Origin: Streptomyces niveus
GTDB lineage: Bacteria; Actinomycetota; Actinomycetes; Streptomycetales; Streptomycetaceae
Assembly: GCF_002009175.1 (NCBI RefSeq)
Contig: NZ_CP018047.1
Span: 434,001 to 498,000, forward strand
Length of the DNA: 64,000 nucleotides
Reading direction: 5' to 3'
The position numbers and the translations under genes were made by a program. The notes under the pieces were generated by a model. That model saw only the letters and a list, made by a program, of their open reading frames with translations. It did no database searches and was not told the DNA's origin. This document shows, piece after piece, positions 24,933 through 43,646 of this stretch. Numbering within the stretch: position 1 is the first letter of the stretch; every line of letters begins with the position of its first letter.

Positions 24933-24942
24933 GGTGTCGCTC

Positions 24943-25566: not shown

Positions 25567-25621
25567 TCTGTAGACGTCCGGGCCCCGCGGAACGTGAGGT
25601 CCGGCGTGCGGTGAGCCGCGC

Positions 25622-26786: not shown

Positions 26787-29700
26787 ATGCGGACTCCAGG
26801 ACCTTCCCGGTCCAACGACTTTTCCCTGCCGCATTCGGTCATCGTGATCAACCCTCTTCAACGGCCGTCCCCACGACTGACAGCTACGGCCGCGGCATCC
26901 GGCGCGATCGGCGTCCTCGAACTCCCCGTCGAGGACCCCCGCGAGACGGTCGACCTGCTCGACCGGACGTGTCGCTGGTCGTCCGCGCCGTTCGGCGTCC
27001 GCGTACGGGAAGGCTGTTCCGCGACCGCCGGTGAGCTGCCCGAACTCGTGGACACGGTGCTCCTCGCCGACCCCGGGCGCTCACCCGCCGAGTTCGCCGG
27101 CCTCCGCGTCCTGGTCGAAGTCACCTCTCTGGCACAGGCGTTGAGCGCCGCCGAGGCCGGTGCGGCCGGGCTGATCGTGCGCGGCTCGGAGAGCGGCGGA
27201 CGCGCGGGTGAGCTGAGCACCTTCGTCCTGCTCCAGCAGGTGCTCGCCGAACCGGCTCTGGATCTGCCGGTCTGGGCCTGCGGCGGCATCGGACCGCACA
27301 CAGCCGCGGCGGCCGTCGCCGGCGGAGCGGCCGGTGTCGTGCTCGACACGCAACTCGCGCTGTTCGACGAGGCGGGGCTGCCGACCGAGCTCGCCGGGGT
27401 GCTGGCCGGGCTCGACGGTTCGGAGACCGTGCTTCACCACGGGACACGCGTGCTGCGCCGCCGTGGCCCCGGCGCCCCCGAACTCCCCTCGGACCAGGCC
27501 GAGTTCATCGCCCGGATCGGCACGGACGATCTCCGTACCCAGTTCGTCCCCCTGGGCCAGGACGCTTTCCTCGCAGCCTCCTTCGCCGATCGCTGGACCA
27601 CGGTGGCCGAGGCCGTACGCGGCATCGCGTCCGCCATGGCGGACGCCTTCGCCGACGACGCGCCGGCCGCCGCGCTGGCCGCCGGCTCGGCCGGGGCGCG
27701 CGCACTGGGCACCCGACTGCCCATCGCCCAGGGGCCGATGACGCGCGTCAGCGACGAGCCCGCCTTCGCGGCGGCAGTCGCGGCCGACGGCGGTCTGCCG
27801 TTCCTCGCGCTCGCCCTGGCGAACGCCGACCGGACCCGCTCGATGCTGCGGCGCACCCGCGACGCGCTCGGCGACGCCAAGTGGGGCGTCGGCATACTCG
27901 GTTTCGCCGACGAGGAGATCAAGGCCGCGCAACTCGACGTCGTACGGGAGCTCAGGCCCACGCACGCGATCGTCGCGGGCGGCAGGCCGGCCCAGGCGGC
28001 CGCGCTGGAGGCGGAGGGCATCACGACCTTCCTGCATGTGCCGTCCCCCGGGCTGCTGCGGCAGTTCCTGGCTGCGGGCGCGCGCCGGTTCATCTTCGAG
28101 GGCGCCGAGTGCGGCGGCCATGTCGGGCCGCGCAACAGCTTCCCGCTGTGGGAGGCGCAGACCGAGGTCCTGCTCGAATTCCTCGCCGCCACCGAGGCGG
28201 GCAGCAAGGGTGGTACGGAGACGGCCGCGGAGCTGACCGTGCTCTTCGCCGGTGGCATCCACGACGAGCGGTCGGCCGCGATGGCCTCCGCGCTGGCGGC
28301 CCCGCTGACCCGGGCCGGTGTCGCGTTCGGCGTACTGATGGGCACGGCCTATCTGTTCACGGAGGAGGCGGTGGGCGGCGGCGCCATCCAGCCGCTCTTC
28401 CAGCGCCGGATACTCGACGCGGAGCGCACCGATCTGCTGGAGACCGCGCCGGGGCACGCCACCCGGTGCGCGCGCAGCGCCATCAGCGAGGACTTCGCTG
28501 CCCTCAAGGACGAGTTGCGCGAACAGGGCGTCCCCGACCGGGAGATCTGGGAGCGCCTTGAGCGGTTCAACGTCGGCCGGCTGCGGCTCGCCAGCAAGGG
28601 GATCGAGCGCGTAGGCGACGATCTGCTCGCCGTGGACGAGACCCGGCAGGCCGACGAGGGCATGTTCATGGCCGGCGAGGTCGTGGTCCTGCGGGACGCG
28701 GTCACCACCGTCGCCGCGCTGCACGATTCCGTGACCGAGGGCGCGGCGGCACGGCTGCGCGTCAGGGCCGGTGAACTGCGCGGTCCGCTCGGTATCGGCG
28801 CGAGCGACGAGCGGCCGGCTCCCGAGCCGCTGCGGGTCGCCGTGGTCGGCATGGCGGGCATGTTCCCCGGCGCGCCCGACCTGGCGGACTTCTGGGCCAA
28901 CATCCTCGCGGGCAAGGACTGCGTCACCGAGGTCCCGGCCCAGCGCTGGGACCAGGAGCGGTACTACTCGCCCGACGGCGACGGCGAACGCACCCCCTCA
29001 CGCTGGGGCGGCTTCCTGCCGGAGATCCCGTTCGACCCGCTGCGCTACGGCATTCCGCCGGCCTCGCTCGCCGCCGTCGAACCGGTTCAGCTCCTCGCGC
29101 TGGAGGCCGCGCGGCGCGCGCTCGCCGACGCGGGGTACGACGCGAAGGGCACCGATCACGCCCGTACGTCGGTGGTGTTCGGCGCCGAGGCGGGCAGTGA
29201 CCTGTCCAACGCGACGACGCTGCGTACGGTGCTGCCCGGCTACATCGGCACGATCCCGCCCGCGCTCGACGAGCAACTGCCGCGGCTCACCGAGGACTCC
29301 TTTCCCGGGATGCTCGCCAACGTCATCGCGGGACGCGTCGCCAACCGGCTCGACCTCGGCGGCGCCAACTACACCGTCGACGCCGCGTGCGCCTCCTCGC
29401 TCACCGCCGTGGACGTCGCCTGCAAGGAACTCGTCGCGGGCACCAGCGACATGGTGCTGTGCGGCGGCGCCGACCTGCACAACGGCATCAACGACTATCT
29501 GCTCTTCTCGTCCGTGCACGCGCTCTCCCCCACCGGCCGCTCGGCCACCTTCGACGCCGCCGCCGACGGCATCGCGCTCGGCGAGGGTGTCGCCTGCGTG
29601 GTCCTCAAGCGGCTCGCCGACGCGGAGCGCGACGGCGACCGGGTGTACGCCGTGATCGACGGCGTGGGCAGCGCGAGCGACGGCCGCGCGCTCGGCCTGA

Positions 29701-32700
29701 CCGCGCCCCGCCCGGAGGGCCAGCACGCCGCCCTCACCCGCGCCTACCGCAACGCCGGTGTCTCGCCCGCCGATGTGGGGCTCGTCGAGGCACACGGCAC
29801 GGGCACCGTCGTCGGGGACCGTACGGAACTGGGCACGCTGACCGAGGTGTTCACCGAAGCCGGGGCGGAGGTGGCCAGTTGCGCCGTCGGCTCCGTCAAG
29901 TCCCAGATCGGGCATACCAAGTGCGCCGCGGGTCTCGCCGGACTGATCAAGGTGACGCTGGCGCTGTACCACGGTGTGAAGCCGCCGACCCTGCATCTCA
30001 AGGAGCCCAACGCCGCCTGGAAGTCGGCGAGCAGCCCGTTCGTCTTCCACACCACGGCGACGCCGTGGGCGGTGGAGCCGGCGGAACGTGTCGCGGGAGT
30101 CAGCGCCTTCGGATTCGGCGGCACCAACTTCCACGCCGTTCTACGCGCGTACACGCAGGCGCCACCCGCGCATGCCCTCGACACCTGGCCCGCCGAACTC
30201 TTCACGTTCCGGGGCCTGGACGCCGAGGCCGCCCGGCGGTCGGTCCGGGCGCTTCAGGACCTCCTCGCCAAGGGTGGCCGGTGGCGCCTGCGCGACTACG
30301 CGCGTAGCGCCGCACAGCGAAGCGACCGGGCCGCGGTGCGCGGCGAGCGCGTATGGATCGCCGTGGTGGCGGACAGCCTCGCCGAGCTGCCCGACCTGCT
30401 GCGCCGCGCGGCAGAGGGGGAGCACGCGCCCGAGGCGGGGATCCACGCGGCCGAACCCGCTGAGAAGGACGGGACGGCTCGGGCAGCCGGGTCGGCTCGG
30501 ACGGCCGACATCGGCGACGGGAAGCTGGCCTTCCTGTTCCCCGGCCAGGGCAGCCAGCGTCCGGGCATGCTCGCCGAACTCTTCGTCGCCTTCCCCGAGT
30601 TGCAGCGACATCTCCAGCTCGGCGCGCGGTGGGCCGATGTCCTGCACCCGCCGGCCGCCTTCGGCGAACAGGGCAAGGCGGGTCAGCTGGCCCGTATCAC
30701 CGACACGGCCGTCGCCCAGCCCGCGCTCGGTGTGGTCGAACTCGCCGCCGCCGAGTTGCTCGCCTCCGTCGGCGTACGTCCGGACATGGCGGCGGGGCAC
30801 AGCTACGGCGAACTGGTCGCGCTCGGGGTAGCCGGGGCGCTCTCCCCCCGGGACGTCATCACGGCGAGCGCCGAGCGCGCCGAGGCGATCCTGTCCCGGA
30901 CGGCGGGCGGCGACCCCGGCACGATGGCCGCCGTCACCGCGTCCCCCGAGCAGGTGGACGAGGTGCTGCGGCTGGCCGGTCTCGCCGGTGAGGTGGTGGC
31001 CGCGAACCGTAACTCGCCCACCCAGACGGTCATTTCGGGGCCGACCGAGCAGGTGGCCGCGGCGGTCGCACGGCTGCGGGACGCGGGACACTCCGTCAAA
31101 CCGCTCCAGGTGGCGTGCGCCTTCCACAGTCCGCTGCTGGCCGGCGCGGGCGACGCCTTCGCCGAGCGGCTCGGCGAACTGACCGTCTACCCGCCCGCGT
31201 TCGACGTGTGGGCCAACCGCACGGCCGAGCCCTATCCGACGGATCCCGCCGGGGTACGGGCCGGGCTCGCCGCCCAGATCGGCTCGCCGGTCAGGTTCGC
31301 CGAGCAGATCGAGGCCATGTACGCGGCCGGTGCCCGGGTCTTCGCCGAGGTCGGGCCGGGCCGGGTGCTCAGCCGGCTGGTCTCGGCCGTTCTCGGTGAC
31401 CGTCCCCATCGCACGATTCCGCTCGACGGGGGGCGGGGCGGCGGACTGTCCGGTTTCCTCACCGCCCTGGCCCAACTCGCCGTGAGCGGCGCCGATGTCC
31501 GCACCGGCAGGCTCTTCCGGGGCCGGGACGCGGTCGATCCGGAGACGGCCGTCGCCGAGCGGAGCCCCGGCTGGACCGTGGACGGCCAGCTCGTCCGTCT
31601 CGCCGACGGAACCATTCCCCCCCACGCCCTGCACCCCGCCCGACCCGTTACGGAGCTGATCGTGCCGGAGAACCATTCCCCCCACGCCCCCCACAGCGCA
31701 CCGGACGCTCTCGTCGCCGAGTTCCTGCGTACCAGTCGCGATCTGGTCGCCGCCCAGCGCGACGTCCTGATGACCTATCTCGGTGGCCCGGGAGCAGTGG
31801 CCGCCGTCTCCGCCCCGGCCGCCGTCACCTGGCAGCCCGCGGCGCTCGCCGCACCGACCGCACCGTCGGTCCTCACACTGCCCGCCGCCGTGTCCCCCAC
31901 CGCGGCGGCGGGCCCCAGCACAACGAACGGCACCGAGCCAGGGCCCGCGACCGTCGCGCCGGCCGAAACGGCCACGTCGCCGACGGACCCGGAGTCGGTG
32001 CTCGCCGCCGTACTGACCGTGGTGGCGGACCGCACCGGCTACCCGGTCGAGATGATCGAGCCCGAGCTCGATCTGGAGGCGGACCTCAGCGTCGACTCCA
32101 TCAAGCGCGCCGAGATCGCCGGTGAACTGGCCGTACGCCTCGGCCTGCCCGTCGACGCGAGCGGCGAACTGGACGGTCTCAGCACGGCGCGCACCGCCGC
32201 CGGCATCACCGGCCTGCTCGTCGAACGGCTCACCGGCTCCGACGCGCCGGCCGCCGCGGACGTCCCGCGGGTGGTGGAGAGCGCCACGGCACCGGACGAC
32301 CCGGCCGAGGCGGAGATCCTGGCGCCGCAGCGACTGGAGTTCACCGAGGCCCCGCTGGACGAGGTGACCGGCACGATCGCCGCCGGTGCCTCCGTACTGC
32401 TGCTCGGCGGCGGCGAGTCGGCGCCCGCGCTGGCCGAGCGGCTGCGCGCGGCCGGTGCCTCGCCCACGCTCGTACCCGCAGGTGAACTGCCGACGGCCAC
32501 GGCCGACGCCGTCGTCTTCCTGGGCACCCTGGACGCGGCGGAGCCGCCGCTCCCCGAGGCTCTTCCGCTGTTCCAGGCGGCGCTCGCGGGCGCGCCCGGC
32601 ACGCTCGTCGCCGTCGAGCGCAGGGCCGAGGGCGCGGCCAGCGGTCTGCGCGGTTTCTTCCGCAGTGTCGCCCGTGAGTACCCCGACATGAAGACGACCC

Positions 32701-33752
32701 TCGTCGAGGTGGCGGCCGACGCGACCGCCGAAGCGGTGTCCGACGCCGTCGTCCTCGAACTGGCCGCCACCGACCGGGAACCGGTCGTCCTCAACGACGG
32801 CGGCGGGCGGCGCGCGCTGCGGCTGACCCAGACCGATCTCGGCGCGCTCGCCGCCACCGGCGCGGGCCCGGCGGGAGAGGGTCAGGCGGAGGCGGAGGCC
32901 GCGGGGCTCGACCGTGAGTCGGTCGTCCTGCTGGTCGGCGGCGCACGCGGGATCACCGCGCGCTTCGCCCGCACGATCGCCTCGGCGAGCCGGTGCCGTA
33001 TCGAACTCATGGGCAGGACCCCGGTGCCCGCTGCGGCGGAGGACCCGGCCACGGCCGGAGCCGCCGACCGTGACGGTCTGCGGGCGGCCTTCCTGGCCAC
33101 CGGTCTGACCTCTCCCGGCGAGGTGGAACGCCTGGTCGGGGCGGTCCTCGCGGAACGCGAGGTGCGCGCCACCGTCGAGGCCCTGCGGGCGCTCGGGAGC
33201 GAGGTGCGCTACCACTGCGTGGACGTGCTCGACACGGAGGACGTACGCGCCACGGTCAAGGACATCTACGCCGAGCACGGCCGGCTCGACGGTCTCGTGT
33301 ACGCGGCCGGGGTCATCGAGGACAAGCTGCTGGCCGAGAAGTCGGCGGAGTCCTTCGGCCGGGTGTTCTCCACGAAGGTCGACGGCGCGCGCGCCGTGCT
33401 CGACGCGGTGGACGTACTGCCGCGCGGCCCGCGTTTCGCGGTGCTGTTCGGCAGCATCGCGGCGGCGCTGGGCAACCGCGGTCAGTCCGACTACGCGGCG
33501 GCCAACGACGCGCTGGAGGAGCTGGGCCGCCGCTGGTCGACGGACGACCGGCGCGGTCTGACGGTGCACTGGGGACCGTGGGCCGCCGCCGAGACCAACG
33601 GCGGCATGGTGACTCCGGCGCTGATGCGCTCGTATGCCGCTCGGGGGATCAAGCTCATCGACCCCGAGGAGGGGCCCCTGAGCTTGCTGCGTGAACTCGC
33701 CTGGGGCGCGCCCCAGGTGCACGCGGCCGTCTACACCGCGTCGGGCTGGTGA
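26787..33752 (+). CDS. PUFA-synthase-like polyketide synthase A (flavin barrel-flavin barrel-KS-AT-ACP-KR)
   Basis: 2321 residues. Residues ~15-240 and ~300-610 are two nitronate-monooxygenase/PfaD-like TIM barrels, each with a flavin-phosphate motif (GSESGGRAG; GAECGGHVG), probably the enoyl-reductase activity that PUFA synthases carry on separate PfaD. KS ~680-1110 has Cys868 (DAACASSL), EAHGTGT and KSQIGHTKCAAG. AT ~1240-1550 has FPGQGSQ and Ser1339 (GHSYGE). After an Ala/Pro linker a single ACP carries Ser1771 (DLSVDSIKRAE, the PUFA-type DSIKR motif). KR ~2045-2300 has LLVGGARGITARFA and Tyr2236 (QSDYAAAND). GTGA overlap with the next gene. Confidence 0.9.
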   Translation: MRTPGPSRSNDFSLPHSVIVINPLQRPSPRLTATAAASGAIGVLELPVEDPRETVDLLDRTCRWSSAPFGVRVREGCSATAGELPELVDTVLLADPGRSPAEFAGLRVLVEVTSLAQALSAAEAGAAGLIVRGSESGGRAGELSTFVLLQQVLAEPALDLPVWACGGIGPHTAAAAVAGGAAGVVLDTQLALFDEAGLPTELAGVLAGLDGSETVLHHGTRVLRRRGPGAPELPSDQAEFIARIGTDDLRTQFVPLGQDAFLAASFADRWTTVAEAVRGIASAMADAFADDAPAAALAAGSAGARALGTRLPIAQGPMTRVSDEPAFAAAVAADGGLPFLALALANADRTRSMLRRTRDALGDAKWGVGILGFADEEIKAAQLDVVRELRPTHAIVAGGRPAQAAALEAEGITTFLHVPSPGLLRQFLAAGARRFIFEGAECGGHVGPRNSFPLWEAQTEVLLEFLAATEAGSKGGTETAAELTVLFAGGIHDERSAAMASALAAPLTRAGVAFGVLMGTAYLFTEEAVGGGAIQPLFQRRILDAERTDLLETAPGHATRCARSAISEDFAALKDELREQGVPDREIWERLERFNVGRLRLASKGIERVGDDLLAVDETRQADEGMFMAGEVVVLRDAVTTVAALHDSVTEGAAARLRVRAGELRGPLGIGASDERPAPEPLRVAVVGMAGMFPGAPDLADFWANILAGKDCVTEVPAQRWDQERYYSPDGDGERTPSRWGGFLPEIPFDPLRYGIPPASLAAVEPVQLLALEAARRALADAGYDAKGTDHARTSVVFGAEAGSDLSNATTLRTVLPGYIGTIPPALDEQLPRLTEDSFPGMLANVIAGRVANRLDLGGANYTVDAACASSLTAVDVACKELVAGTSDMVLCGGADLHNGINDYLLFSSVHALSPTGRSATFDAAADGIALGEGVACVVLKRLADAERDGDRVYAVIDGVGSASDGRALGLTAPRPEGQHAALTRAYRNAGVSPADVGLVEAHGTGTVVGDRTELGTLTEVFTEAGAEVASCAVGSVKSQIGHTKCAAGLAGLIKVTLALYHGVKPPTLHLKEPNAAWKSASSPFVFHTTATPWAVEPAERVAGVSAFGFGGTNFHAVLRAYTQAPPAHALDTWPAELFTFRGLDAEAARRSVRALQDLLAKGGRWRLRDYARSAAQRSDRAAVRGERVWIAVVADSLAELPDLLRRAAEGEHAPEAGIHAAEPAEKDGTARAAGSARTADIGDGKLAFLFPGQGSQRPGMLAELFVAFPELQRHLQLGARWADVLHPPAAFGEQGKAGQLARITDTAVAQPALGVVELAAAELLASVGVRPDMAAGHSYGELVALGVAGALSPRDVITASAERAEAILSRTAGGDPGTMAAVTASPEQVDEVLRLAGLAGEVVAANRNSPTQTVISGPTEQVAAAVARLRDAGHSVKPLQVACAFHSPLLAGAGDAFAERLGELTVYPPAFDVWANRTAEPYPTDPAGVRAGLAAQIGSPVRFAEQIEAMYAAGARVFAEVGPGRVLSRLVSAVLGDRPHRTIPLDGGRGGGLSGFLTALAQLAVSGADVRTGRLFRGRDAVDPETAVAERSPGWTVDGQLVRLADGTIPPHALHPARPVTELIVPENHSPHAPHSAPDALVAEFLRTSRDLVAAQRDVLMTYLGGPGAVAAVSAPAAVTWQPAALAAPTAPSVLTLPAAVSPTAAAGPSTTNGTEPGPATVAPAETATSPTDPESVLAAVLTVVADRTGYPVEMIEPELDLEADLSVDSIKRAEIAGELAVRLGLPVDASGELDGLSTARTAAGITGLLVERLTGSDAPAAADVPRVVESATAPDDPAEAEILAPQRLEFTEAPLDEVTGTIAAGASVLLLGGGESAPALAERLRAAGASPTLVPAGELPTATADAVVFLGTLDAAEPPLPEALPLFQAALAGAPGTLVAVERRAEGAASGLRGFFRSVAREYPDMKTTLVEVAADATAEAVSDAVVLELAATDREPVVLNDGGGRRALRLTQTDLGALAATGAGPAGEGQAEAEAAGLDRESVVLLVGGARGITARFARTIASASRCRIELMGRTPVPAAAEDPATAGAADRDGLRAAFLATGLTSPGEVERLVGAVLAEREVRATVEALRALGSEVRYHCVDVLDTEDVRATVKDIYAEHGRLDGLVYAAGVIEDKLLAEKSAESFGRVFSTKVDGARAVLDAVDVLPRGPRFAVLFGSIAAALGNRGQSDYAAANDALEELGRRWSTDDRRGLTVHWGPWAAAETNGGMVTPALMRSYAARGIKLIDPEEGPLSLLRELAWGAPQVHAAVYTASGW

Positions 33753-36700
33753 CAGCGGTGGACTCCCGCACACCGGTCGCCGTCGTCGGCATGGCCGTGT
33801 ACTTTCCGGGCGCCAACAATCTGGAGAGTTACTGGCACAACATCGTCAACGGCGTCGACTCGATCACCGAGGTCCCCGAGGGCCGTTGGGACGAGGAGTT
33901 CTACGCGCCCGGCGGGCCCCCGCGCAGCGACCGGGTGTACTGCCGCCGGGGCGGATTCGTGGACCAGAGCGCCGAGTTCGACGTGACGCGGTTCGGCATC
34001 ATGCCGACGTCGGTCGCGGGGACGGAGCCGGACCAGCTGATCGCGCTGGATGTGGCCCATCAGTCGATCGCGGACGCGGGCGGTGAGCCGGTGCTGCCGG
34101 TGGACCGGCAGCGGGCGGGGATCGTGCTGGGCAGGGGCGGTTATCTGACACCGGGTCTGGTCAGGCTGGACCAACGGGTGCGTACGTCCAACCAGTTGGT
34201 GCGCACCCTGCGTGAGCTGGCGCCGGAGCTGGGCGACGACCGGCTGGAGGAGGTGCGTTCGGCCTTCGCCGGCCAACTCGGCCCGGAGCAGCCGGAGTCG
34301 GCGATCGGACTGGTGCCGAATCTGGCCGCGTCGCGGGTGGCGAACCGGCTCGACCTGCGCGGCCCCGCGTACACGGTCGACGCCGCGTGCGCCTCGTCAC
34401 TGGTGGCCGTCGACCACGCGGTACGTGAACTGGCCAGTGGTCGCTGCGACGTGATGCTCGCCGGCGGGGTGCACCACTGCCACGACATCACGCTGTGGAG
34501 TGTGTTCAGCCAACTCGGCGCGCTGTCGCCGAGTGAGCGGATCCGTCCGCTGCACCAGGGCGCGGACGGTGTGCTCATCGGCGAGGGCACGGGCATCGTG
34601 GTGCTCAAGCGGCTGGCGGACGCGGAACGTGACGGCGACCGGGTGTACGCGGTGGTCTCCGGTACGGGTGTGGCCAGCGACGGCCGCTCGGCCAGTCTGT
34701 TCAACCCGGATCCCGGCGGGCAGGTCCGTGCCGTACGGCAGGCGTGGGACGCGGCGGGTCTCGATCCGCGTGCGGCCGACGCGATCGGTCTGCTGGAGGC
34801 GCACGGTACGGCGACCCCGGCCGGGGACCGGGCCGAACTGACCACGCTGGCCGAGGTGTTCGGTCCGGCCGTGGGCGCGCGTGCCGCGATCGGGTCGGTG
34901 AAGTCGATGATCGGTCACACGATGCCGGCGGCGGGTGTCGCGGGTCTGATCAAGGCGGCGCTCGCGCTCCATCACCGGGTGCTGCCGCCGACGTTGCACT
35001 GCGAGGACCCGAATCCGGCGCTGGAGGCGACGAGGTTCGCGCCGCTGGCGCGGTCCGCGCCGTGGGAGGACCCCGGCACGGGCGCGCCGAGGCGCGCGGG
35101 TGTCAACGCGTTCGGCTTCGGCGGCATCAACGCGCATGTGGTGCTGGAGCAGGCGGCGCCGGTCGCCTCCGCGTCGGCTCCGGCCGGTGGGAGCGTGACA
35201 GTCGGCGGCCGTACGGCACGAGCGACGGCGACGGCGACCGTCACCGAACCGGAGCGGGTGCTGCGGCTCGCGGCCCCCGACCGGGCGGCGCTCGCGGCGC
35301 TGCTGGACGCGGACGACTCGACGGTCCTGGCGGCCGGTCTCGACGAGCGCGACACCGCCGGCGGGCCGGTCAGGCTGGGCATCGTCGACCCGACGGCGCG
35401 CCGGCTGAAGCTGGCCAGGAAGGCGGTCACCAAGGGCGCGGCCTGGCGCGGGCGCAGCGACGTGTGGTTCAGTCCGCGTCCGCTGCTCGGTCCCGGCGGC
35501 GGGAAGACGGCGTTCGTCTTCCCCGGTCTCGAAGCCGAGTTCGAGGCCCAGGTGGACTCGCTGGCGGAGCGGTTCGGGCTGACGTGGTCGCCGGGGCACG
35601 GAGCCGAGGTGGGCGACGTGGGCCGGCACGGCGCGGCGGTGTTCCAGCTCGGGCGGCTCCTGGACACGGCGCTGCGCCGGCTGTCCGTGGTGCCCGACTC
35701 GGTCGCGGGGCACAGCGTCGGTGAGTGGACGGCGATGGCCTGCGGCGGGATCCACGCGGCGGACGAGGTCGACACGTTCCTCGCGGGCTTCGACCCGGAC
35801 GCGCTGCGCGTGCCCGGTGCGGCCTTCGCCGTGCTGGGGATGCCCGCCGACCGGGTGCTCGCCGAGCTGGCGGGCCGGAGCGATGTCGTGCTGTCGCACG
35901 ACAACGCGCCGAACCAGTCGATGATCTGCGGTCCCGAGGACGCGGTCGGCGAACTGGTCCACCGGTTCCGGACCGAGGGTGTGATCGGGCAGGTGCTGCC
36001 GTTCCGTTCCGGCTTCCACACCCCGATGCTCGCCCCGTACCTGGACCCGATCCGACGGGCCGCGGAGACGTACACACTGAATCCGCAGTCCACGCCGGTC
36101 TGGTCGGCGACGAGCGCCGCCCGTTATCCCGAGGACCCGGTGGCGGTAAGGGAGTTGTTCGTCCGGCATCTGCTCGAACCGGTGCGGTTCCGGCAGTTGG
36201 TCACGGCGATGCACGACGCGGGGCACCGCGCGTTCATCCAGCTCGGCGCCGGTCAGCTCGGCTCGCTGATCGACGACACGCTGGCGGGCAAGGACCGGCT
36301 GGTCGTCTCCGCGCACTCCTCGGCGCGCGACAGTCTGGCGCAGTTGCGCCGGGTCGTCACCGCGCTGTGGGTGGAGGGCGCGGCGCCGGACGCCGGTCCG
36401 CTGCTCGGGTCGGCGCCCGTCGCCGCTTCCGCCGCCGCTCCGGCGAGCGCCGGACGTCCCCGGTCGGGTGTACGGCTCGACCTCGGCGGGGCGCTGGTGT
36501 CCCTGCCCGATCAGGCCAGAAAGCTGCTCGCCGACAGCATCGGCTATCCCCCGGCCGCCCGCTCGCTCGGTGACGGCGGCGCGCTCGCACGGCTGGAGGC
36601 GCTCGGCCGGGACGGTGCCGGGTTCCCGATGGCCGCCGAACTGTCGGCGCTGATGAACGACACGGCGGCCGTCGCGGACGAGCTGATCGCGGCACGCCGC

Positions 36701-38314
36701 GCGGGACGGGCCGTGCTTCCGTTCCCGGCGGCACCCCCCGCACCCGCGCCCGCCCCGGCGCCCCCCGCCGTGCCCACCACGCTGCGCGTGGACGTCGCCA
36801 AGATGCCGTACCTCCTCGACCACTGCTTCTTCCGGCAGCGCCCCGGCTGGCCCGACGAGGGCGATCGCTGGCCGATCGTCCCCGCCACCACCGTCATCGG
36901 TCATCTGATGGGGATCGCCGAACGCGTCGTACCCGGCACACGGGCGGTGGCGGTGCACGACGTACGCCTGCTGAAGTGGATCGAGGCGATGCCCGCCGTC
37001 GATGTGCCGGTGGAGGTACGGCAGTTGGCGGCGGACCGGGTCGAGGTGTCACTCACGGGATACTCGCGCGCCGTGGTCGAACTGGCCGGCGCCCACCCCG
37101 CGCCGCCCGCACCATGGCCGGTGGACACCTCCGTCGAACGAGTGCCTGAACTGACGGCTCGTCAGCTCTACGACGAGCGGTGGATGTTCCACGGACCGCG
37201 CTTCCAGGGCGTCAGTGAGCTGTCGGCCGTCGGCGACCGGTGGGTACGCGGCGCGCTGACCACGCCCTCGGCTCCGGGCGCCCTGCTGGACAACGTCGGT
37301 CAGCTGCTCGGTTACTGGATCATGGCGACGCTCACCGAGCGCACGACCGTCTTCCCCGTCCGTATGGAGCACATCCGCTTCCACGGGCCGCACCCGAGGC
37401 CGGGCGAGCGGCTGACCTGTCTGATCCGTATCACCGAGGTCACCGACCTCACGCTCACCGCCGACATGCAGCTGATCGGTCAGGGCGGCGCCGTGTGGGC
37501 GGAGTTCACGGGCTGGCAGGACCGGCGTTTCGACACCGACCCCAACATCCGTGCGGTGGACCGTTTTCCGGGTGACAACACCCTGTCCACGGAGCGGCCG
37601 GGCGGCTGGACGATGGTCCACGAGCGCTGGCCCGATCTCGCGACGCGCGAGCTGATCATGCGCAACATGCTCGGCAGCACCGAGCGGGCGCGTTACGACG
37701 AACTCCCGCCGGTGCACCGGCGCCAGTGGCTCCTTGGACGCATCGCGGCCAAGGACGCGGTGCGCGGGCTGCTGTGGCGGGAGGGCGCGGGTGAGATCTA
37801 TCCGGCCGAGATCGCCGTACGTAACGACAGGACGGGGCGCCCGCTGGCCGAGGGCGTACACGGCCGGGAACTGGGCGAGCTGACGGTCTCGATCGCGCAC
37901 CGGCGCGAGACGGGGGTGGCCGTCGCGGCGCGCGGGGCCTGCGGCATCGACGTCGAGGAGATCGCCGAACGGCCGCGCGCCACGGTCGAGACCTCGTGCG
38001 ACACCAGCGAACTCGCCCTGCTCGACGGTCTGGTGGCGCGGTCACCGGGCAGCGGCCCGCTCTGGTTCACCCGGTTCTGGACCGCGAAGGAAGCCGTCGC
38101 CAAGGCGCGCGGCACGGGTCTGCGGGGCCGCCCGGCGGAGTTCCGGGTGGTGTCCGCCGACGAGAGGCGCGTCCGTGTGATGGCCGGGGGCCGGCTCTAC
38201 GAGGTGCGTGTGGAACAGACAGCCAATCCGCCGGGGCTGCCGGATCGGCAGTACGTCGTCGCCTGGACGACGACCGAGCACAACAAGACAGACCAGACAG
38301 GAGATCCGACATGA
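33749..38314 (+). CDS. PUFA-synthase-like polyketide synthase B (KS-AT-DH-PPTase)
   Basis: 1521 residues. KS ~8-460 is complete (Cys214 in DAACASSL, EAHGTAT, KSMIGHTMPAAG). An AT-like domain follows (~585-900): the nucleophile is present (GHSVGEW, Ser656) but the entry motif reads FPGLEAEF instead of FPGQGSQ. Residues ~1010-1280 resemble the hot-dog dehydratase of PUFA/heterocyst-glycolipid synthases (RWMFHGPRFQGV, FPVRMEHIRFHGP). The C-terminus (~1330-1500) is a Sfp-type phosphopantetheinyl transferase with GIDVEEI and WTAKEAVAKARGTG, so the assembly line can activate its own ACPs, as enediyne PKSs do. ATGA overlap with the ACP gene. Confidence 0.88.
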   Translation: MTAVDSRTPVAVVGMAVYFPGANNLESYWHNIVNGVDSITEVPEGRWDEEFYAPGGPPRSDRVYCRRGGFVDQSAEFDVTRFGIMPTSVAGTEPDQLIALDVAHQSIADAGGEPVLPVDRQRAGIVLGRGGYLTPGLVRLDQRVRTSNQLVRTLRELAPELGDDRLEEVRSAFAGQLGPEQPESAIGLVPNLAASRVANRLDLRGPAYTVDAACASSLVAVDHAVRELASGRCDVMLAGGVHHCHDITLWSVFSQLGALSPSERIRPLHQGADGVLIGEGTGIVVLKRLADAERDGDRVYAVVSGTGVASDGRSASLFNPDPGGQVRAVRQAWDAAGLDPRAADAIGLLEAHGTATPAGDRAELTTLAEVFGPAVGARAAIGSVKSMIGHTMPAAGVAGLIKAALALHHRVLPPTLHCEDPNPALEATRFAPLARSAPWEDPGTGAPRRAGVNAFGFGGINAHVVLEQAAPVASASAPAGGSVTVGGRTARATATATVTEPERVLRLAAPDRAALAALLDADDSTVLAAGLDERDTAGGPVRLGIVDPTARRLKLARKAVTKGAAWRGRSDVWFSPRPLLGPGGGKTAFVFPGLEAEFEAQVDSLAERFGLTWSPGHGAEVGDVGRHGAAVFQLGRLLDTALRRLSVVPDSVAGHSVGEWTAMACGGIHAADEVDTFLAGFDPDALRVPGAAFAVLGMPADRVLAELAGRSDVVLSHDNAPNQSMICGPEDAVGELVHRFRTEGVIGQVLPFRSGFHTPMLAPYLDPIRRAAETYTLNPQSTPVWSATSAARYPEDPVAVRELFVRHLLEPVRFRQLVTAMHDAGHRAFIQLGAGQLGSLIDDTLAGKDRLVVSAHSSARDSLAQLRRVVTALWVEGAAPDAGPLLGSAPVAASAAAPASAGRPRSGVRLDLGGALVSLPDQARKLLADSIGYPPAARSLGDGGALARLEALGRDGAGFPMAAELSALMNDTAAVADELIAARRAGRAVLPFPAAPPAPAPAPAPPAVPTTLRVDVAKMPYLLDHCFFRQRPGWPDEGDRWPIVPATTVIGHLMGIAERVVPGTRAVAVHDVRLLKWIEAMPAVDVPVEVRQLAADRVEVSLTGYSRAVVELAGAHPAPPAPWPVDTSVERVPELTARQLYDERWMFHGPRFQGVSELSAVGDRWVRGALTTPSAPGALLDNVGQLLGYWIMATLTERTTVFPVRMEHIRFHGPHPRPGERLTCLIRITEVTDLTLTADMQLIGQGGAVWAEFTGWQDRRFDTDPNIRAVDRFPGDNTLSTERPGGWTMVHERWPDLATRELIMRNMLGSTERARYDELPPVHRRQWLLGRIAAKDAVRGLLWREGAGEIYPAEIAVRNDRTGRPLAEGVHGRELGELTVSIAHRRETGVAVAARGACGIDVEEIAERPRATVETSCDTSELALLDGLVARSPGSGPLWFTRFWTAKEAVAKARGTGLRGRPAEFRVVSADERRVRVMAGGRLYEVRVEQTANPPGLPDRQYVVAWTTTEHNKTDQTGDPT

Positions 38315-38622
38315 CCACCGAAACGATCGCGGGTACGGCGGCGGCCGTGCAGAGCGACATCACCGCGATGCTGCGGACCATGCTGGAGGAGGACGGCCTC
38401 GACGACGCGGAGATCACGCGCGAGACCACCTTCCACGACGATCTCGAACTGGAGAGCATCGATCTGGTGACCCTGGCGGGTTCGCTCCGCGAGCACTACG
38501 GCGACCGGGTCAACCTGGCCCTGTTCATCGCCGACCTGGACCTGGAGGAGATCATCGCGCTGACGGTCGGCGAGCTGATCGACTACGTCGCCGCCTCCTT
38601 GCACGCGGACGGGCAGGTCTGA
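38311..38622 (+). CDS. Discrete acyl carrier protein
   Basis: 103 residues. Phosphopantetheine attachment site is the Ser in FHDDLELESIDLVTLAGSL, with the four-helix ACP pattern on both sides. Slightly long at both ends for an ACP. ATG 38311 overlaps the PKS B stop (ATGA). Since PKS A has only one internal ACP, this free carrier probably presents either the starter or the finished chain to the hydrolase or the tailoring enzymes (inference). Confidence 0.9.
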   Translation: MTTETIAGTAAAVQSDITAMLRTMLEEDGLDDAEITRETTFHDDLELESIDLVTLAGSLREHYGDRVNLALFIADLDLEEIIALTVGELIDYVAASLHADGQV

Positions 38623-38624
38623 CG

Positions 38625-39437
38625 ATGGCGAAGGTACGCACCGGGGAGATCACCACCCACGTCCAGCGGCTGCCCGCGGCGAACCCGCCGGCCGACGGCG
38701 GCGAAACGCCGGTCGTCGTGTTCGTCCACGGTCTGCTCACGGACAGCCTGGCCAGCTACTACTTCACGCTCGGCCCGGCGTTCGCGGCGGCGGGCATCGA
38801 CGTGATCATGTACGACCTGCGCGGCCACGGCCGCAGCGACCGGCCGCCCACGGGTTACCGGCTCGAATCGTTCGTCGGGGACCTCGTCGGCGTACTCGAC
38901 GCGCTCGGCGAGACGCGCCGGGTGCATGTGGTCGGCAACTCCTTCGGCGGCACGATCGCGACCGCGTTCGCCGCCTGGCATCCCGACAGGGTCGCCACCG
39001 TCACCATGATCGAGTCGGAGCCGCCGGTCGCCGAGTGGACCCGGCACATGGCCGACGGGCTCACCGACGCGAAGAACCAGCTGGCCCGCGAGGAGGTCAT
39101 CGGCTGGATCTCGGCGAACCACGGCGCGCACACCGCCCGGCTGTCGCGGGGAGCGAGCCGCATTCTCGCCACGACCACCCTCGCCGAGGACGTCCCGGCC
39201 GGGCGGGTCATCGACGACGGCCTCGACGCCCTCAGCGGCTGCCCGGTGCTGGCGATCTTCGGTGACGAGTCCGGGCTGAGCGCGCAAGTGCCCGACCTGG
39301 AGGCGAAGTTGATGTCGTGCCGCACCGTGGTCCTCGCCGAGCAGGGCCACTCGGTGCTGGTCGAGCGCACCGAGGAGACCCAGGAACTGATCCTGCGCTG
39401 GGTACGGGAACACACCCTGGCCGAGGCAGTGCGGTGA
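38625..39437 (+). CDS. Alpha/beta-hydrolase (thioesterase-like)
   Basis: 270 residues. VVVFVHGLLTDS gives the oxyanion region, GNSFGG the nucleophile elbow, FGDESGL the acid and EQGHSVLVE the catalytic His. Begins 2 bp after the ACP stop and its own stop overlaps the glycosyltransferase start (GTGA). No signal peptide. As the PKSs have no thioesterase domain, this is the best candidate for chain release, either by hydrolysis or transfer (inference). Confidence 0.85.
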   Translation: MAKVRTGEITTHVQRLPAANPPADGGETPVVVFVHGLLTDSLASYYFTLGPAFAAAGIDVIMYDLRGHGRSDRPPTGYRLESFVGDLVGVLDALGETRRVHVVGNSFGGTIATAFAAWHPDRVATVTMIESEPPVAEWTRHMADGLTDAKNQLAREEVIGWISANHGAHTARLSRGASRILATTTLAEDVPAGRVIDDGLDALSGCPVLAIFGDESGLSAQVPDLEAKLMSCRTVVLAEQGHSVLVERTEETQELILRWVREHTLAEAVR

Positions 39438-40618
39438 CACGGTTCCTGCTCGTCGTCCCCCCACTGGTCGGGCACACCAACCCGCTGGCCGCCGTCGCCG
39501 GCGAACTGCTGTCCCGGGGCCATGAGGTGGCGTGGGCCGGTTACGGCGAACAGATCCGGGCGCTCGCGGGCCCGCGGGCCGAGGTGTTCGAGTGCGCCAT
39601 GCCGGACAGCGGGCTGAGCCGGCCGCCGGGCCTCACGGGGCCCGCCGCCTTCCAGCACCTCTGGGAGAAGTTCTTCGTCCCGCTCGGTGATCTGATGGCG
39701 CCGGGCGTCGACGCGGCGATCGACGCGTTCCGGCCCGACGCCGTGTTCACCGACCAGCACGCCGTCGCGGGCGCGCTGGTCGCCGAACGGCGCGGGATCG
39801 TGCATGTCACCTCAGCGACCACATCGGCCGAACTCGTCGACCCTCTGGCCGAGTTGCCCAAGGTGGGGGCCTGGCTGGCCGATCTCCTCGGCGGTCTGCG
39901 GGCACGCGTCGGCGATCCGTCGGCGTCGGGCGATCCGCGCTTCTCGCCGCACGGCGTGATCGCGTTCACGGGACGGGAGCTGGTCGGCGACAAGCCGTTG
40001 CCGAGCGAGCACGTCCATCTGGTCGGTCCCGCCGTCGCCCCGCGTGCGGGGAGTTCGGACTTTCCCTGGGAGCGTCTCGACCCGGCCCGGCGCCTCGTTC
40101 TCGTCTCGCTCGGCACCGCCAACGCGGACGCCGGTGGCCGCTTCCTCACGGAGGCGGTGACCGCGCTCGACGCGCTCGGTGACCGTGTGCAGGGGGTCGT
40201 GGTCGATCCCGGCCGCAACCTCGGAGCCGTACCGCCCGGTGTGATCGTGCGCCCGCACGTACCTCAACTCGATCTGCTGGCACGGGCCGACGCCGTCGTG
40301 TGCCACGCCGGCCACAACACGGTGTGCGAGACGCTGTGGCACGGCCTGCCGCTGGTACTCGCCCCGATCCGTGACGACCAGCCCATCGTCGCGGGGCAGG
40401 TGGTCGACGCGGGCGCCGGTGTGCGCGTCCGCTTCCGGCGGGTGGACGCCGCCCGGCTCGGGGCGGCGATCGAGACCGTACTGGACGACGCCGGCGGCCA
40501 CCGGGCCGTCGCCCAGTCCATCGGCCGGTCGCTGCGCGCGGCCGGCGGCCGGTCCGCCGCCGCCGATCACCTCGAACGGATCGCGGCAGCACACGCCCCC
40601 GTCCCCGCGTCCGGCTGA
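39434..40618 (+). CDS. GT1-family (MGT/UGT-like) glycosyltransferase
   Basis: 394 residues from GTG 39434. GT-B fold: N-terminal FLLVVPPLVGHTNPLAAVAGELLSRGHEV acceptor domain and C-terminal donor domain with RPHVPQLDLLARADAVVCHAGHNTVCETLWHGLPLVLAPIRDDQPI (the H-x-G-x-x-T and P-x-x-x-D-Q elements of macrolide/zeaxanthin-type enzymes). Transfers a nucleotide-activated hexose to a hydrophobic hydroxyl. Position points to glycosylation of the PKS product. It could alternatively act on a carotenoid, but it lies 29 kb from that locus and inside this operon. Confidence 0.88.
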   Translation: MTRFLLVVPPLVGHTNPLAAVAGELLSRGHEVAWAGYGEQIRALAGPRAEVFECAMPDSGLSRPPGLTGPAAFQHLWEKFFVPLGDLMAPGVDAAIDAFRPDAVFTDQHAVAGALVAERRGIVHVTSATTSAELVDPLAELPKVGAWLADLLGGLRARVGDPSASGDPRFSPHGVIAFTGRELVGDKPLPSEHVHLVGPAVAPRAGSSDFPWERLDPARRLVLVSLGTANADAGGRFLTEAVTALDALGDRVQGVVVDPGRNLGAVPPGVIVRPHVPQLDLLARADAVVCHAGHNTVCETLWHGLPLVLAPIRDDQPIVAGQVVDAGAGVRVRFRRVDAARLGAAIETVLDDAGGHRAVAQSIGRSLRAAGGRSAAADHLERIAAAHAPVPASG

Positions 40619-40666
40619 GACCCCACCTTCCTGCCGAACTCCCCCACCGCTACCACGGGACCCCCC

Positions 40667-42595
40667 ATGACATCGGCTTCCGCCCCCACCGACTCCCCCA
40701 CCGAACCCGCCGGTGAGGCCAGCACGACTGACGGTCCGTCAGGCACAACTCCCCTGCGCGTCCTGCTCGGTTACGCCCGGCCCCACCGGCTCGTGCTGTG
40801 CGCCACCCTGTTGCTCCTCCTGGCGGCGAGCGGGGCCGGTCTCGTACAGCCGCTGGTGGCGCAGCACGTACTGGACGGACTGGCCGACGGCGACGGAGTC
40901 ATGGGGCCCGTACTGCTCCTGGCCGCCCTGGTCGTCCTGGGCGCCGTACTCACCGGGCTCCAGTCCTGGTGGCAGCAGCGCACCTCGGAGCGGGTGGTCC
41001 GGCAGATCCGCCGGGACCTGGTGTTCCGGCTGATCCGGCTGCGGGTGCCCGAACTCGACCGCCGCGCGCCGGGCGATCTCATCTCCCGGGTCACCTCCGA
41101 CAGCACCCTCGTGCAGAACGCCGCGACCGAGGGCCTGGTGATGGTCGCCAACGGTGTGCTCAGCATCCTGGGGGCCGTGGTCCTGATGGGACTGGTGCAT
41201 CTGGGACTGCTCGGAGTGACCGTGGGGGTGCTGCTCGCCGTCACCCTGGTGATGGTGCTGATCCTGCCGCGGATCCGTGAGGCGGTCGCCCGCTCTCAGG
41301 AGTCGATCGGCTCCGTCGGCGCGGCGCTCGACCGGGCGCTGGGCGCGGCGCGGACCGTGAAGGCCAACGGCGCCGAGGGCCGGGAGACGGCGCGGGCGGG
41401 AGAGGCGGTCGACGGCGCGTACCGGGCGGGACTGACCGGCGCGCGGTACGTGGCGATGGTGAAGGTGTTGTCCGGTGTCTCCATCCAGGCGGCGTTCCTC
41501 GCCGTGCTCGGGGTGGGCGGCGCGCTGGTCGCCTCGGGAGGTCTGGAGGCGTCGGCGCTCATCGCGTTCCTGCTGTACGTGTTCTATCTGGCGAGTCCGA
41601 TCGGCTCGCTGGTCGCGGGGCTCGGAATGCTTCAGCAGGGGCTGGGCGCCGTGGGGCGTATCGAACAGGTCGGGCGGATGCCGATCGAGGACGACGTCGA
41701 CACCGACGGTGATGCCGACGGGCGTGCGAGCGTGGGCCGTTGGGACGGGAAGGACGCACCGCCGGTCGAGTTCAGGGACGTCCACTTCTCCTACCCGGAC
41801 CGGTCCCCCGCGCTGCGGGGGGTCTCGTACACGGTGCGCGGCGGCACCCAGAGCGCGCTGGTCGGTCTGTCGGGTGCGGGAAAGACCACGATGTTCGCCC
41901 TGCTCCAGCGGTTCTACGAGCCCGCGGCCGGCCGGATCCTGATCGGCGGTGTGGACATCGCCACGCTGCCGCGCGCCGAGGTACGCCGCCGGATCGCCTA
42001 TGTCGAGCAGGAGTCGCCCGTCATGGCGGGGACGATCGAGGACAACCTCACGTACGCGGCGTCGGAGGTGTCGGACGAGGAAGTGGCGGAGGTCCTGCGG
42101 CTGACACGGCTCGACTCGCTGATAGAGAGGCTGCCCGACGGGCTGCGCACGGAGGTCGGCAGCCGGGGCGTCGCGCTGTCGGGCGGTGAACGGCAGCGGC
42201 TCGCGATCGCGCGGGCCCTGCTGCGCGGTCCCGAGGTGCTGCTGCTGGACGAGGCGACGGCGCAGCTCGACGCGAGCAACGAGCGGGCGCTGCGCGAGGC
42301 GGTCGAGCAGGCGGCGCGGCGCTGCACCGTGATCCTGATCGCGCACCGGCTCTCCACGGTGACGGGGGCGGAGCAGATCGTGGTGCTCGAACACGGCCGG
42401 GTCCGTGCCACGGGGACGCACGAGGAGCTGGTCGAGGCCGATGTGCTGTACCGCGAACTCGCCGCCTCCCAGATGCTGGTCGGCGACGACGGCGCGGACG
42501 TCTCCGAGGTGACGGGTGTCGCGGGCGTCGCGGGTGACACGGGTGTCGCGCGCGTCGGCGGAGCGGCCGGGGAGCCGGTGCCGGTGAATCGGTGA
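40667..42595 (+). CDS. ABC exporter (fused membrane and ATPase domains, MsbA/MDR type)
   Basis: 642 residues. Six membrane helices in residues ~30-320, then an ATPase with Walker A ALVGLSGAGKTT, Q-loop YVEQES, signature ALSGGERQRLAIARALL, Walker B VLLLDEATAQLD and switch His in LIAHRLSTV. The C-terminal ~35 residues are Gly/Val/Ala repeats (GVAGVAGDTGV). Such half-transporters homodimerise and export lipids, peptides or drugs. Last gene of the PKS operon, 48 bp after the glycosyltransferase and followed by a hairpin terminator; probably exports the glycosylated product. Confidence 0.9.
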   Translation: MTSASAPTDSPTEPAGEASTTDGPSGTTPLRVLLGYARPHRLVLCATLLLLLAASGAGLVQPLVAQHVLDGLADGDGVMGPVLLLAALVVLGAVLTGLQSWWQQRTSERVVRQIRRDLVFRLIRLRVPELDRRAPGDLISRVTSDSTLVQNAATEGLVMVANGVLSILGAVVLMGLVHLGLLGVTVGVLLAVTLVMVLILPRIREAVARSQESIGSVGAALDRALGAARTVKANGAEGRETARAGEAVDGAYRAGLTGARYVAMVKVLSGVSIQAAFLAVLGVGGALVASGGLEASALIAFLLYVFYLASPIGSLVAGLGMLQQGLGAVGRIEQVGRMPIEDDVDTDGDADGRASVGRWDGKDAPPVEFRDVHFSYPDRSPALRGVSYTVRGGTQSALVGLSGAGKTTMFALLQRFYEPAAGRILIGGVDIATLPRAEVRRRIAYVEQESPVMAGTIEDNLTYAASEVSDEEVAEVLRLTRLDSLIERLPDGLRTEVGSRGVALSGGERQRLAIARALLRGPEVLLLDEATAQLDASNERALREAVEQAARRCTVILIAHRLSTVTGAEQIVVLEHGRVRATGTHEELVEADVLYRELAASQMLVGDDGADVSEVTGVAGVAGDTGVARVGGAAGEPVPVNR

Positions 42596-42601
42596 AACGC
42601 G

Positions 42602-42637
42602 GTGAGGGCATTCCGCCTTCGAGCGGAATGCCCTCAC
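42602..42637. terminator. Terminator of the PKS operon
   Basis: Perfect 15 bp stem (GTGAGGGCATTCCGC at 42602-42616, complement at 42623-42637) with a 6-nt loop CTTCGA, seven bases after the exporter stop and followed by TTTCCTC. Placed between convergent genes, so it can serve the SGNH hydrolase gene as well. Confidence 0.85.
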
Positions 42638-42679
42638 TTTCCTCAGCCGTTCTCAGCGTTCTCGATCAGTGCGATCGGG

Positions 42680-43489: not shown

Positions 43490-43646
43490 GAATACTTCTC
43501 CGATGAGTGGGGTCATGGACTCTATATAAATAGCACCGGTCAGCACTCTGCGGAATAGGTAGTCATAAATTATCTGATGGCATTTCAGGAGCCACCCCTT
43601 CCAGCGCGCAACCTTCATGCAACGTTGCGTCGGGTTCACTGGCGGG

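What the first reader, a model, noticed from the sequence alone, without database searches (positions are those of the whole stretch)
26787..42595. PUFA-synthase-like operon with glycosyltransferase and exporter: candidate new glycolipid pathway
Six coupled genes encode two PUFA-type PKSs, an ACP, a hydrolase, a GT1 glycosyltransferase and an ABC exporter, ending in one terminator. S. coelicolor has a PUFA-like locus (SCO0124-0129, from memory) with no known product; the glycosyltransferase and exporter here suggest a secreted or surface glycolipid.
Basis: partly seen in the sequence, partly recalled or inferred. Interest (0 to 1): 0.85.

Follow-up and report, generated by a model that had tools for sequence, protein, structure and literature searches.

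The report
Glycolipid gene cluster with fatty-acid megasynthase
A bacterial gene set that very probably builds a long fatty acid and joins it to a sugar; its five core genes travel together through many soil bacteria, its product is unknown, and a group of antiviral sugar-lipids is one concrete candidate.

Summary
Six same-strand genes at 26787-42595 encode two Pfa-type megasynthases, an ACP, an alpha/beta-hydrolase, a GT1 glycosyltransferase and an ABC exporter, followed by a strong hairpin. The glycolipid reading is strengthened: the glycosyltransferase is found in 82 of 82 related loci chosen by the second synthase and in 19 of 20 more distant ones, and mostly overlaps the hydrolase gene by 4 bases (60 of 80). 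The exporter is not core: it alternates by clade with a SAM methyltransferase.

Three corrections. (1) It is not a PUFA synthase: P1 scores below the PfaA cut-off, and I found no chain-length-factor stretch, no FabA-type dehydratases and one ACP in P1. (2) It does not fit the domain order described for the S. coelicolor locus (Type L); the same genome holds a separate PUFA-like locus. (3) It is not a new family: it is very probably the uncharacterised 'Type M' of Shulse and Allen (2011), conserved in Frankia.

Most likely product: an exported glycosylated long-chain hydroxy-fatty acid or its lactone. The boldest reading still open is the macrodiolide glucolipids (glucolipsin, fattiviracin, cycloviracin). 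The product itself was not tested.

The parts
26787..33752 (+). P1, 2321 aa megasynthase: two FabK-like ER stretches - KS - AT - ACP - KR
   Evidence: P1 proper in 76 of 82 related loci, the held DNA of the other 6 starting inside P2
26826..27536 (+). P1 ER-like stretch 1 (aa 14-250, union of matches), no His at the FabK GGH position (R in window)
   Evidence: (R 47, P 9, A 1, V 1, gap 8 of 66 rows)
27705..28739 (+). P1 ER-like stretch 2 (aa 307-651), FabK-like with GGH445
   Evidence: (H in 66 of 66)
28833..29999 (+). P1 ketosynthase with Cys-His-His
   Evidence: 66 of 66
30531..31496 (+). P1 acyltransferase, GHSYG and AFH motif (malonyl type by recalled rule)
   Evidence: 66 of 66
32007..32192 (+). 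P1 single ACP domain (VDSIKR)
   Evidence: Ser 66 of 66; 47 of 66 rows have one ACP-like motif, 18 two, 1 three
32922..33584 (+). P1 ketoreductase, Tyr/Ser/Lys intact
   Evidence: 66 of 66
33749..38314 (+). P2, 1521 aa: KS - AT - DH - phosphopantetheinyl transferase
33770..35005 (+). P2 ketosynthase with Cys-His-His (active-type KS, not a CLF)
   Evidence: 77 of 77
35687..36247 (+). P2 acyltransferase (GHSVG...GFH)
   Evidence: Ser 76 of 77, His 77 of 77
36776..37531 (+). P2 PS-DH-type dehydratase, H1025 / D1181
   Evidence: 77 of 77
37940..38203 (+). P2 phosphopantetheinyl transferase domain
   Evidence: D 70, E 75, K 73, E 73 of 77
38311..38622 (+). stand-alone acyl carrier protein, Ser49
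   Evidence: 82 of 82 loci; Ser in 82 of 82 rows
38625..39437 (+). alpha/beta-hydrolase, proposed thioesterase/lactonase: S106-E130-H242
   Evidence: 80 of 82 loci; not in L073, L080; Ser 73 + Cys 8, Glu 81, His 81, of 81 rows
39434..40618 (+). GT1 glycosyltransferase of the macrolide-GT kind (below that model's cut-off)
   Evidence: 82 of 82; 19 of 20
40667..42595 (+). ABC exporter, MsbA-related, permease and ATPase in one protein
   Evidence: clade-limited
42601..42638 (+). terminator-like hairpin after the operon
   Evidence: not listed by the scan

Best explanation
An iterative synthase that makes a glycosylated long-chain hydroxy-fatty acid. P2's own PPTase domain activates the ACPs. P1 (KS-AT-ACP-KR with fused FabK-like ER) and P2 (second active-type KS, second AT, DH) extend a malonyl-derived chain, reducing it fully in most rounds and keeping a hydroxyl in at least the last. 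The finished chain passes to the stand-alone ACP and is released by the hydrolase as acid, ester or lactone. The GT adds a hexose, probably glucose, to a chain hydroxyl. In this clade the ABC exporter moves the product out; in others a methyltransferase takes that place in the operon. Shown: gene content, order, spacing, conserved catalytic residues, clade-wise swap of the last gene. Inferred: every chemical step.
For: Core order P1-P2-ACP-hydrolase-GT: GT in 82 of 82, ACP in 82 of 82, hydrolase in 80 of 82 loci; hydrolase and GT overlap by 4 bases in 60 of 80 loci and lie within -4 to +1 in 74 of 80. The order persists at lower identity (best pieces 32-59% over the five proteins) in 20 fetched distant loci: P1, P2, ACP, hydrolase 20 of 20, GT 19 of 20. 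GT presence tracks the synthase in 41 same-genus genomes. Catalytic residues conserved. The hydrolase has an invariant acid 24 residues after the nucleophile and matches the chain 3qit, named polyketide synthase. No match to the genome's own fatty-acyl-reductase-like gene in 102 loci or the window, so a fatty alcohol is unlikely. The one of those 41 genomes with the GT but no P2 match has it next to a P450 gene, as hydroxy-fatty-acid glucosylation would want. The GT carries a DQ pair (81 of 81 rows), which by recalled rule favours UDP-glucose. No FabA-type DH or CLF stretch argues against methylene-interrupted polyenes.
Against: No product, acceptor, sugar or expression data. The GT belongs to a family that also glycosylates macrolides and other aglycones. 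One of 20 distant loci (L126) has no GT match. The 80 genome loci were picked by P2 similarity and are the best 80 of 123, so they are not independent samples; the 20 distant loci were chosen by me from the places. The hydrolase resembles esterases and epoxide hydrolases more than thioesterases and is not found in 2 of 82 loci. Fully reduced rounds are assumed from domain content alone. The exporter is absent next to the GT in most of the family.
Confidence: 0.65

Rival explanations
1. A special case of the best explanation (its odds lie inside the 0.65): the cluster makes macrodiolide glucolipids of the glucolipsin / fattiviracin / cycloviracin kind, two 3-O-glucosyl hydroxyacyl units closed head to tail by the hydrolase acting as a dimerising thioesterase; the MT-type clusters make O-methylated members.
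For: Described structures need long (poly)hydroxy acyl chains, glucosylation and two ester closures, from Streptomyces, Nocardia and Kibdelosporangium (PMC4365757 passages); the non-cyclic sugars of cycloviracin are methoxylated at C2, which would need a methyltransferase, and 64 of 103 assessed loci have one after the GT. Gene content otherwise fits. I found no gene cluster for them in the passages opened from 6 of the 25 papers listed.
Against: No producer genome could be examined by name. Glucolipsin has a 2-methyl group that the malonyl-type AT motif does not explain. The MT is a zinc-ribbon-like Methyltransf_23 protein of unknown substrate, not shown to be a sugar O-methyltransferase. Some members carry four or five sugars with only one GT here.
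Confidence: 0.2
2. A free or membrane fatty acid is the product (the 'secondary lipid synthase' reading of Shulse and Allen), the GT acting on something else.
For: Pfa-type KS-AT; the Type M pathway was called the likely only complete fatty-acid pathway of one species (PMC3098273 passages).
Against: GT tied to the core in 82 of 82 and 19 of 20 loci and overlapping the hydrolase gene by 4 bases in 60 of 80.
Confidence: 0.12
3. A true PUFA synthase (EPA/DHA-like).
For: Best-scoring NCBIfam model is PfaA, 857.5 bits; nearest own-genome relative of P1 is the separate PUFA-like locus, 45%.
Against: Below the PfaA cut-off of 1010.1; no FabA-type DH, one KS stretch per protein, one ACP in P1; a FabA-didomain probe matched 1 of 102 loci, on the opposite strand of a neighbouring gene, and not the window.
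Confidence: 0.03
4. A heterocyst-glycolipid-like fatty alcohol glycoside that serves as an oxygen barrier, in Frankia as in cyanobacteria.
For: Pfa-like synthase plus GT; P2 segment in 32 of 35 genomes of the family that holds nitrogen fixers.
Against: No match to an acyl-reductase probe in 102 loci. The MT-type copy is also in genomes without a nifH match (G139, G150, G171), and the P2 segment is in 85 of 295 genomes of the window's genus, whose own member has no nifH match. The Frankia vesicle envelope is described as hopanoid (PMC5745019 passages).
Confidence: 0.05

Closest known systems
Type M pfa-like cluster (Shulse and Allen 2011, PMC3098273; passages seen)
   Same: Actinomycete distribution including their three Frankia genomes; Pfa-type; product unknown
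   Different: Their main text never mentions a glycosyltransferase ('glycosyl' 0 occurrences); domain order of Type M is in a figure not held, so identity is inferred
Type I PKS cluster conserved in all Frankia strains studied, duplicated in EuI1c and ACN14a (Doroghazi and Metcalf 2013, PMC3848822; passages and section 14 seen)
   Same: Conservation and two-copy pattern match the genomes examined here
   Different: No gene-level description or product in the main text; 'glycosyl' 0 occurrences
Heterocyst glycolipid synthase (hgl, Type F)
   Same: Pfa-like iterative synthase for the lipid part of a glycolipid
   Different: HglC is KS-CLF-AT and Type F lacks the DH/I domains; here no CLF stretch, DH and PPTase fused in P2, a hydrolase and no reductase match
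PfaABCDE PUFA synthase (Types A, B)
   Same: KS-AT-ACP-KR order, second KS/AT protein, flavin-type ER, PPTase
   Different: No CLF stretch, no FabA-type DH pair, one ACP in P1, FabK-like ER fused to the N-terminus of P1
Macrodiolide glucolipids glucolipsin / fattiviracin / cycloviracin
   Same: Chemistry the gene set could produce
   Different: No genes known to me or seen in the passages opened; link is a hypothesis

Membership tests
PfaA-type PUFA synthase (TIGR02813) | Score over the curated cut-off of 1010.1 bits | tested here: not met
   P1 857.5, P2 479.0 bits; no place in the window's genome passes, its other PUFA-like locus included
PfaA-type PUFA synthase (TIGR02813) | FabA-type dehydratase/isomerase pair | tested here: not met
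   None in P1 or P2; control: present in the genome's other locus; probe matches 1 of 102 loci, in an opposite-strand neighbour, and not the window
PfaA-type PUFA synthase (TIGR02813) | KS followed by a chain-length-factor domain | tested here: not met
   P2 has one KS stretch, with Cys in 77 of 77 rows; the other locus shows two KS stretches
PfaA-type PUFA synthase (TIGR02813) | Tandem ACP domains | tested here: not met
   One in the window's P1; by motif 47 of 66 rows one, 18 two, 1 three. Shulse and Allen do not require it for secondary lipid synthases
Type M secondary lipid synthase | Occurs in Frankia and some streptomycetes | tested here: met
   P2 segment in 32 of 35 genomes of the family of G127; nifH over cut-off in 4 of 4 tested g35 genomes and in 0 of 3 tested g64 genomes; 85 of 295 same-genus genomes.
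Type M secondary lipid synthase | Domain order and KS phylogeny of Type M | not testable with these tools
   Figure 1 of PMC3098273 not held; no named reference KS sequences at hand
Heterocyst glycolipid synthase (Type F) | KS-CLF-AT protein | tested here: not met
Heterocyst glycolipid synthase (Type F) | Reductive release to an alcohol (recalled) | tested here: not met
   own-genome acyl-reductase-like gene as probe: 0 of 102 loci, none in the window; a very different reductase, or one beyond the held DNA, would be missed
Macrodiolide glucolipid pathway | Core genes present in a known producer | not testable with these tools
Macrodiolide glucolipid pathway | Product is a glucosyl hydroxyacyl dimer | not testable with these tools
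   needs chemistry

The most novel reading that the evidence does not exclude
The five-gene core is the missing biosynthetic route to the actinomycete macrodiolide glucolipids (glucolipsin, fattiviracin, cycloviracin, macroviracin), with the swapped last gene (exporter or methyltransferase) setting the subtype; the same machinery, found in 32 of 35 sampled Frankia-family genomes, would then supply an undescribed long-chain hydroxy-glycolipid there.
Probability: 0.17. Interest if true: 0.82.

Novelty: new variant of a known kind. Interest (0 to 1): 0.6.

Why it matters
A cluster type listed as product-unknown in 2011, and found in 32 of 35 sampled genomes of one family with nitrogen fixers and 85 of 295 of the window's genus, gets a concrete, testable product class. 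The linked GT, the non-PUFA domain set and the swap of exporter for methyltransferase say what to look for by mass spectrometry and which gene to delete. If the macrodiolide link is right, it would give the first genes I know of for an antiviral glycolipid family.

Tried and rejected
Rejected: PUFA product (domain content, cut-off); likeness to SCO0124-0129 (Type L domain order not met; no S. coelicolor sequence compared); fatty alcohol / heterocyst-type product (no match to the acyl-reductase probe in 102 loci); a link to nitrogen fixation alone (MT-type copies in genomes without a nifH match); f18 as mycolic-acid bacteria (2 of 13 genomes, G077 and G134, pass the Pks13 cut-off, each only with neighbours in a long PKS frame summed).

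No product for the family turned up in literature searches; these were listings, of which I opened 14 papers in all, at passages or single sections.

In 'none' (20) includes L079, where the MT is present but my ORF coordinates failed. 'cut' (4) means the contig ended. Five loci have both ABC and MT matches, but there the ABC matches are 26-48% and not next to the GT. The GT tree is a quick one and warns of long branches.
Full report
What is there. Six genes on the + strand run from 26787 to 42595. P1 and P2 overlap by 4 bases, P2 and ACP by 4, ACP and hydrolase are 2 bases apart, hydrolase and GT overlap by 4, and the exporter follows after 48 bases. A hairpin with a 16-bp stem from 42601 closes the unit, with a short T tail that the consensus scan does not accept. 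P1 has two FabK-like ER stretches, then KS - AT - ACP - KR. P2 is KS - AT - PS-DH - PPTase. The first ER-like stretch lacks the His of the FabK GGH motif; the second keeps it in 66 of 66 rows. Only sequence supports the two-stretch reading, because the structure job did not finish. The window sits at 434-498 kb of a 7.99 Mb single contig, very probably a Streptomyces: the nearest named relative is Streptomyces sp. NP-1717, 94% in the best segment of the queried part of P2.

Not a PUFA synthase. P1 scores 857.5 bits against the PfaA model's cut-off of 1010.1. There is one KS stretch in P2, with an intact Cys in 77 of 77 rows, so no chain-length factor was seen. No FabA-type dehydratase is present. 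As a control, the same genome has a second Pfa-like locus near C1:679-695 kb: one protein with KS, AT, ACP, KR and PS-DH, one with two KS stretches, AT and two FabA domains, and a fatty-acyl-reductase-like gene upstream. It too stays below the PfaA cut-off. Its order (KS-KS/CLF-AT-FabA-FabA) is not exactly that given for Type L (KS-CLF-DH2-AT in S. coelicolor; PMC3098273 passages), and I did not compare either locus with S. coelicolor sequence. The window's cluster lacks the CLF and DH2 parts of Type L altogether.

The family. A plasmid search with P2 found 296 records, 2 of them covering at least 80% of the query, both Streptomyces megaplasmids at 59.6%. Both carry P1-P2-ACP-hydrolase-GT and then a methyltransferase instead of the exporter. 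A scan of named genomes with the C-terminal part of P2 gave 123 relatives, of which the best 80 were kept. In these 82 loci tblastn finds the ACP in 82, the GT in 82 and the hydrolase in 80. P1 proper is in 76; the held DNA of the other 6 begins inside P2. Where both genes could be placed, hydrolase and GT overlap by 4 bases in 60 of 80 and lie between -4 and +1 in 74 of 80. The loci were selected on P2, so the presence of P2 is by construction; that of the GT is not.

Breadth. The same P2 segment matches (E up to 1e-60) in 42 of 296 sampled genomes of the class (11 of 114 genera), in 85 of 295 of the window's genus and in 32 of 35 of the family of G127. Of that family, 4 of 4 tested genomes of genus g35 have nifH over the cut-off and 0 of 3 of genus g64. 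I chose 20 places and fetched them: P1, P2, ACP and hydrolase match in 20 of 20 and the GT in 19 of 20, L126 being the exception; best pieces are 32-59% identical. Doroghazi and Metcalf report a type I PKS cluster conserved in all Frankia strains they studied and duplicated in EuI1c and ACN14a (PMC3848822, section 14). G077 (by length ACN14a) and G139 (by recalled length EuI1c) have two copies here and G127 one. Shulse and Allen's Type M, conserved in their three Frankia genomes, is therefore very probably this family, although its domain order is in a figure that is not held. Neither main text mentions a glycosyltransferase ('glycosyl' 0 occurrences in both).

The swapped last gene. Of 103 assessed loci (window, 82 and 20), 64 have the methyltransferase after the GT, 14 the exporter, 20 neither, 4 end too soon and 1 has no GT; one of the 20 (L079) has the MT but failed my coordinate rule. 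On a quick tree of 100 GTs the MT label needs 5 changes against 30.1 in shuffles, ABC 8 against 13.3 and 'none' 9 against 18.5. Four genomes of the Frankia-like family (G077, G139, G150, G171) hold one copy of each type. In the one Amycolatopsis locus examined (L020) an SDR and an MFS transporter follow the GT. So the exporter is a clade trait and the GT a family trait.

Tie between GT and synthase. Among the 41 same-genus genomes, 15 have a close GT (E below 1e-80) and 14 of these have the P2 segment; all 14 with P2 have the GT (seven of the 41 fall in the unlisted part and are taken as negative). The exception, G002, has the GT (62%) beside a cytochrome P450 gene, and no match to P1, P2, ACP or hydrolase in 19.9 kb around it. 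A hydroxylase-plus-glucosyltransferase pair is what a hydroxy-fatty-acid glucoside would need; this is one example.

Mechanism. Active-site residues are conserved: KS1 66 of 66, KS2 77 of 77, KR 66 of 66, DH 77 of 77, stand-alone ACP 82 of 82, GT His14, Asp107, His291, Glu299 and DQ 81 of 81 rows; the PPTase residues are less constant (70 to 75 of 77). The hydrolase nucleophile is Ser in 73 and Cys in 8 of 81; Glu130 and His242 are invariant, while the residue I first took for the acid (214) is not. An acid 24 residues after the nucleophile is the layout I recall for the curacin CurM thioesterase; 3qit, which I recall as that protein, is among the matches, below several esterases and epoxide hydrolases. 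PfaB is reported to act as a late or terminal acyltransferase (PMC12895367 passages); P2's second AT could hand the chain to the stand-alone ACP in that way (inference). No relative of the genome's own acyl-reductase-like gene is found in 102 loci or the window, so release as acid or lactone fits better than an alcohol. Chain type, length, hydroxyl positions and sugar are inferred.

A concrete candidate. The macrodiolide glucolipids are described as dimers of glucose and iso-branched C18 acyl chains with 2-methyl and 3-hydroxyl groups (glucolipsin) or of long trihydroxy acyl chains (fattiviracin, cycloviracin), the non-cyclic sugars of cycloviracin being methoxylated at C2 (PMC4365757 passages). 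The gene set could make such compounds, and the MT-type clusters would suit cycloviracin. I saw no gene cluster for them in the passages opened from 6 of the 25 papers. Against it: the 2-methyl of glucolipsin, several sugars with one GT, an unassigned methyltransferase, and no producer genome examined. I give the macrodiolide reading 0.2, and 0.17 with the Frankia extension.

Verdict.

Noticed in passing
window 24297-26509 (-): An ECF-like sigma factor gene (24943-25566) lies between two O6-methylguanine-DNA methyltransferase-like genes, divergent from the operon.
   Followed up: no
window 42680-43777 (-): A GDSL lipase gene converges on the operon; a relative lies beside the operon in L013, L014, L017, L072 and, in the other orientation, L015 and L028.
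   Followed up: partly
G000:C1 about 679-695 kb (L096): Separate Pfa-like locus with FabA-type dehydratases, a fatty-acyl-reductase-like gene and a WS/DGAT-like ORF.
   Followed up: partly
L020 13902-17281: In this Amycolatopsis locus an SDR and an MFS transporter, not the exporter or methyltransferase, follow the GT.
   Followed up: partly
L050, L063, L065, L075, L076, L079, L081, L090: The hydrolase has Cys in place of the nucleophilic Ser.
   Followed up: no
L120 14836-16698, L129 15265-17145: In these Frankia-like genomes the methyltransferase lies in a 620-626 aa protein whose N-terminal part has no Pfam match.
   Followed up: no
L073, 19740-21407 (-): In S. eurocidicus a FabA-didomain coding stretch lies close to this cluster on the opposite strand, so both lipid synthase kinds may be neighbours.
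   Followed up: no
L140 7162-10101: Lone close relative of the GT next to a P450 gene, without the synthase.
   Followed up: partly
window 18042-18117 (-): ARAGORN calls an unassigned tRNA with a four-base anticodon; probably spurious.
   Followed up: no
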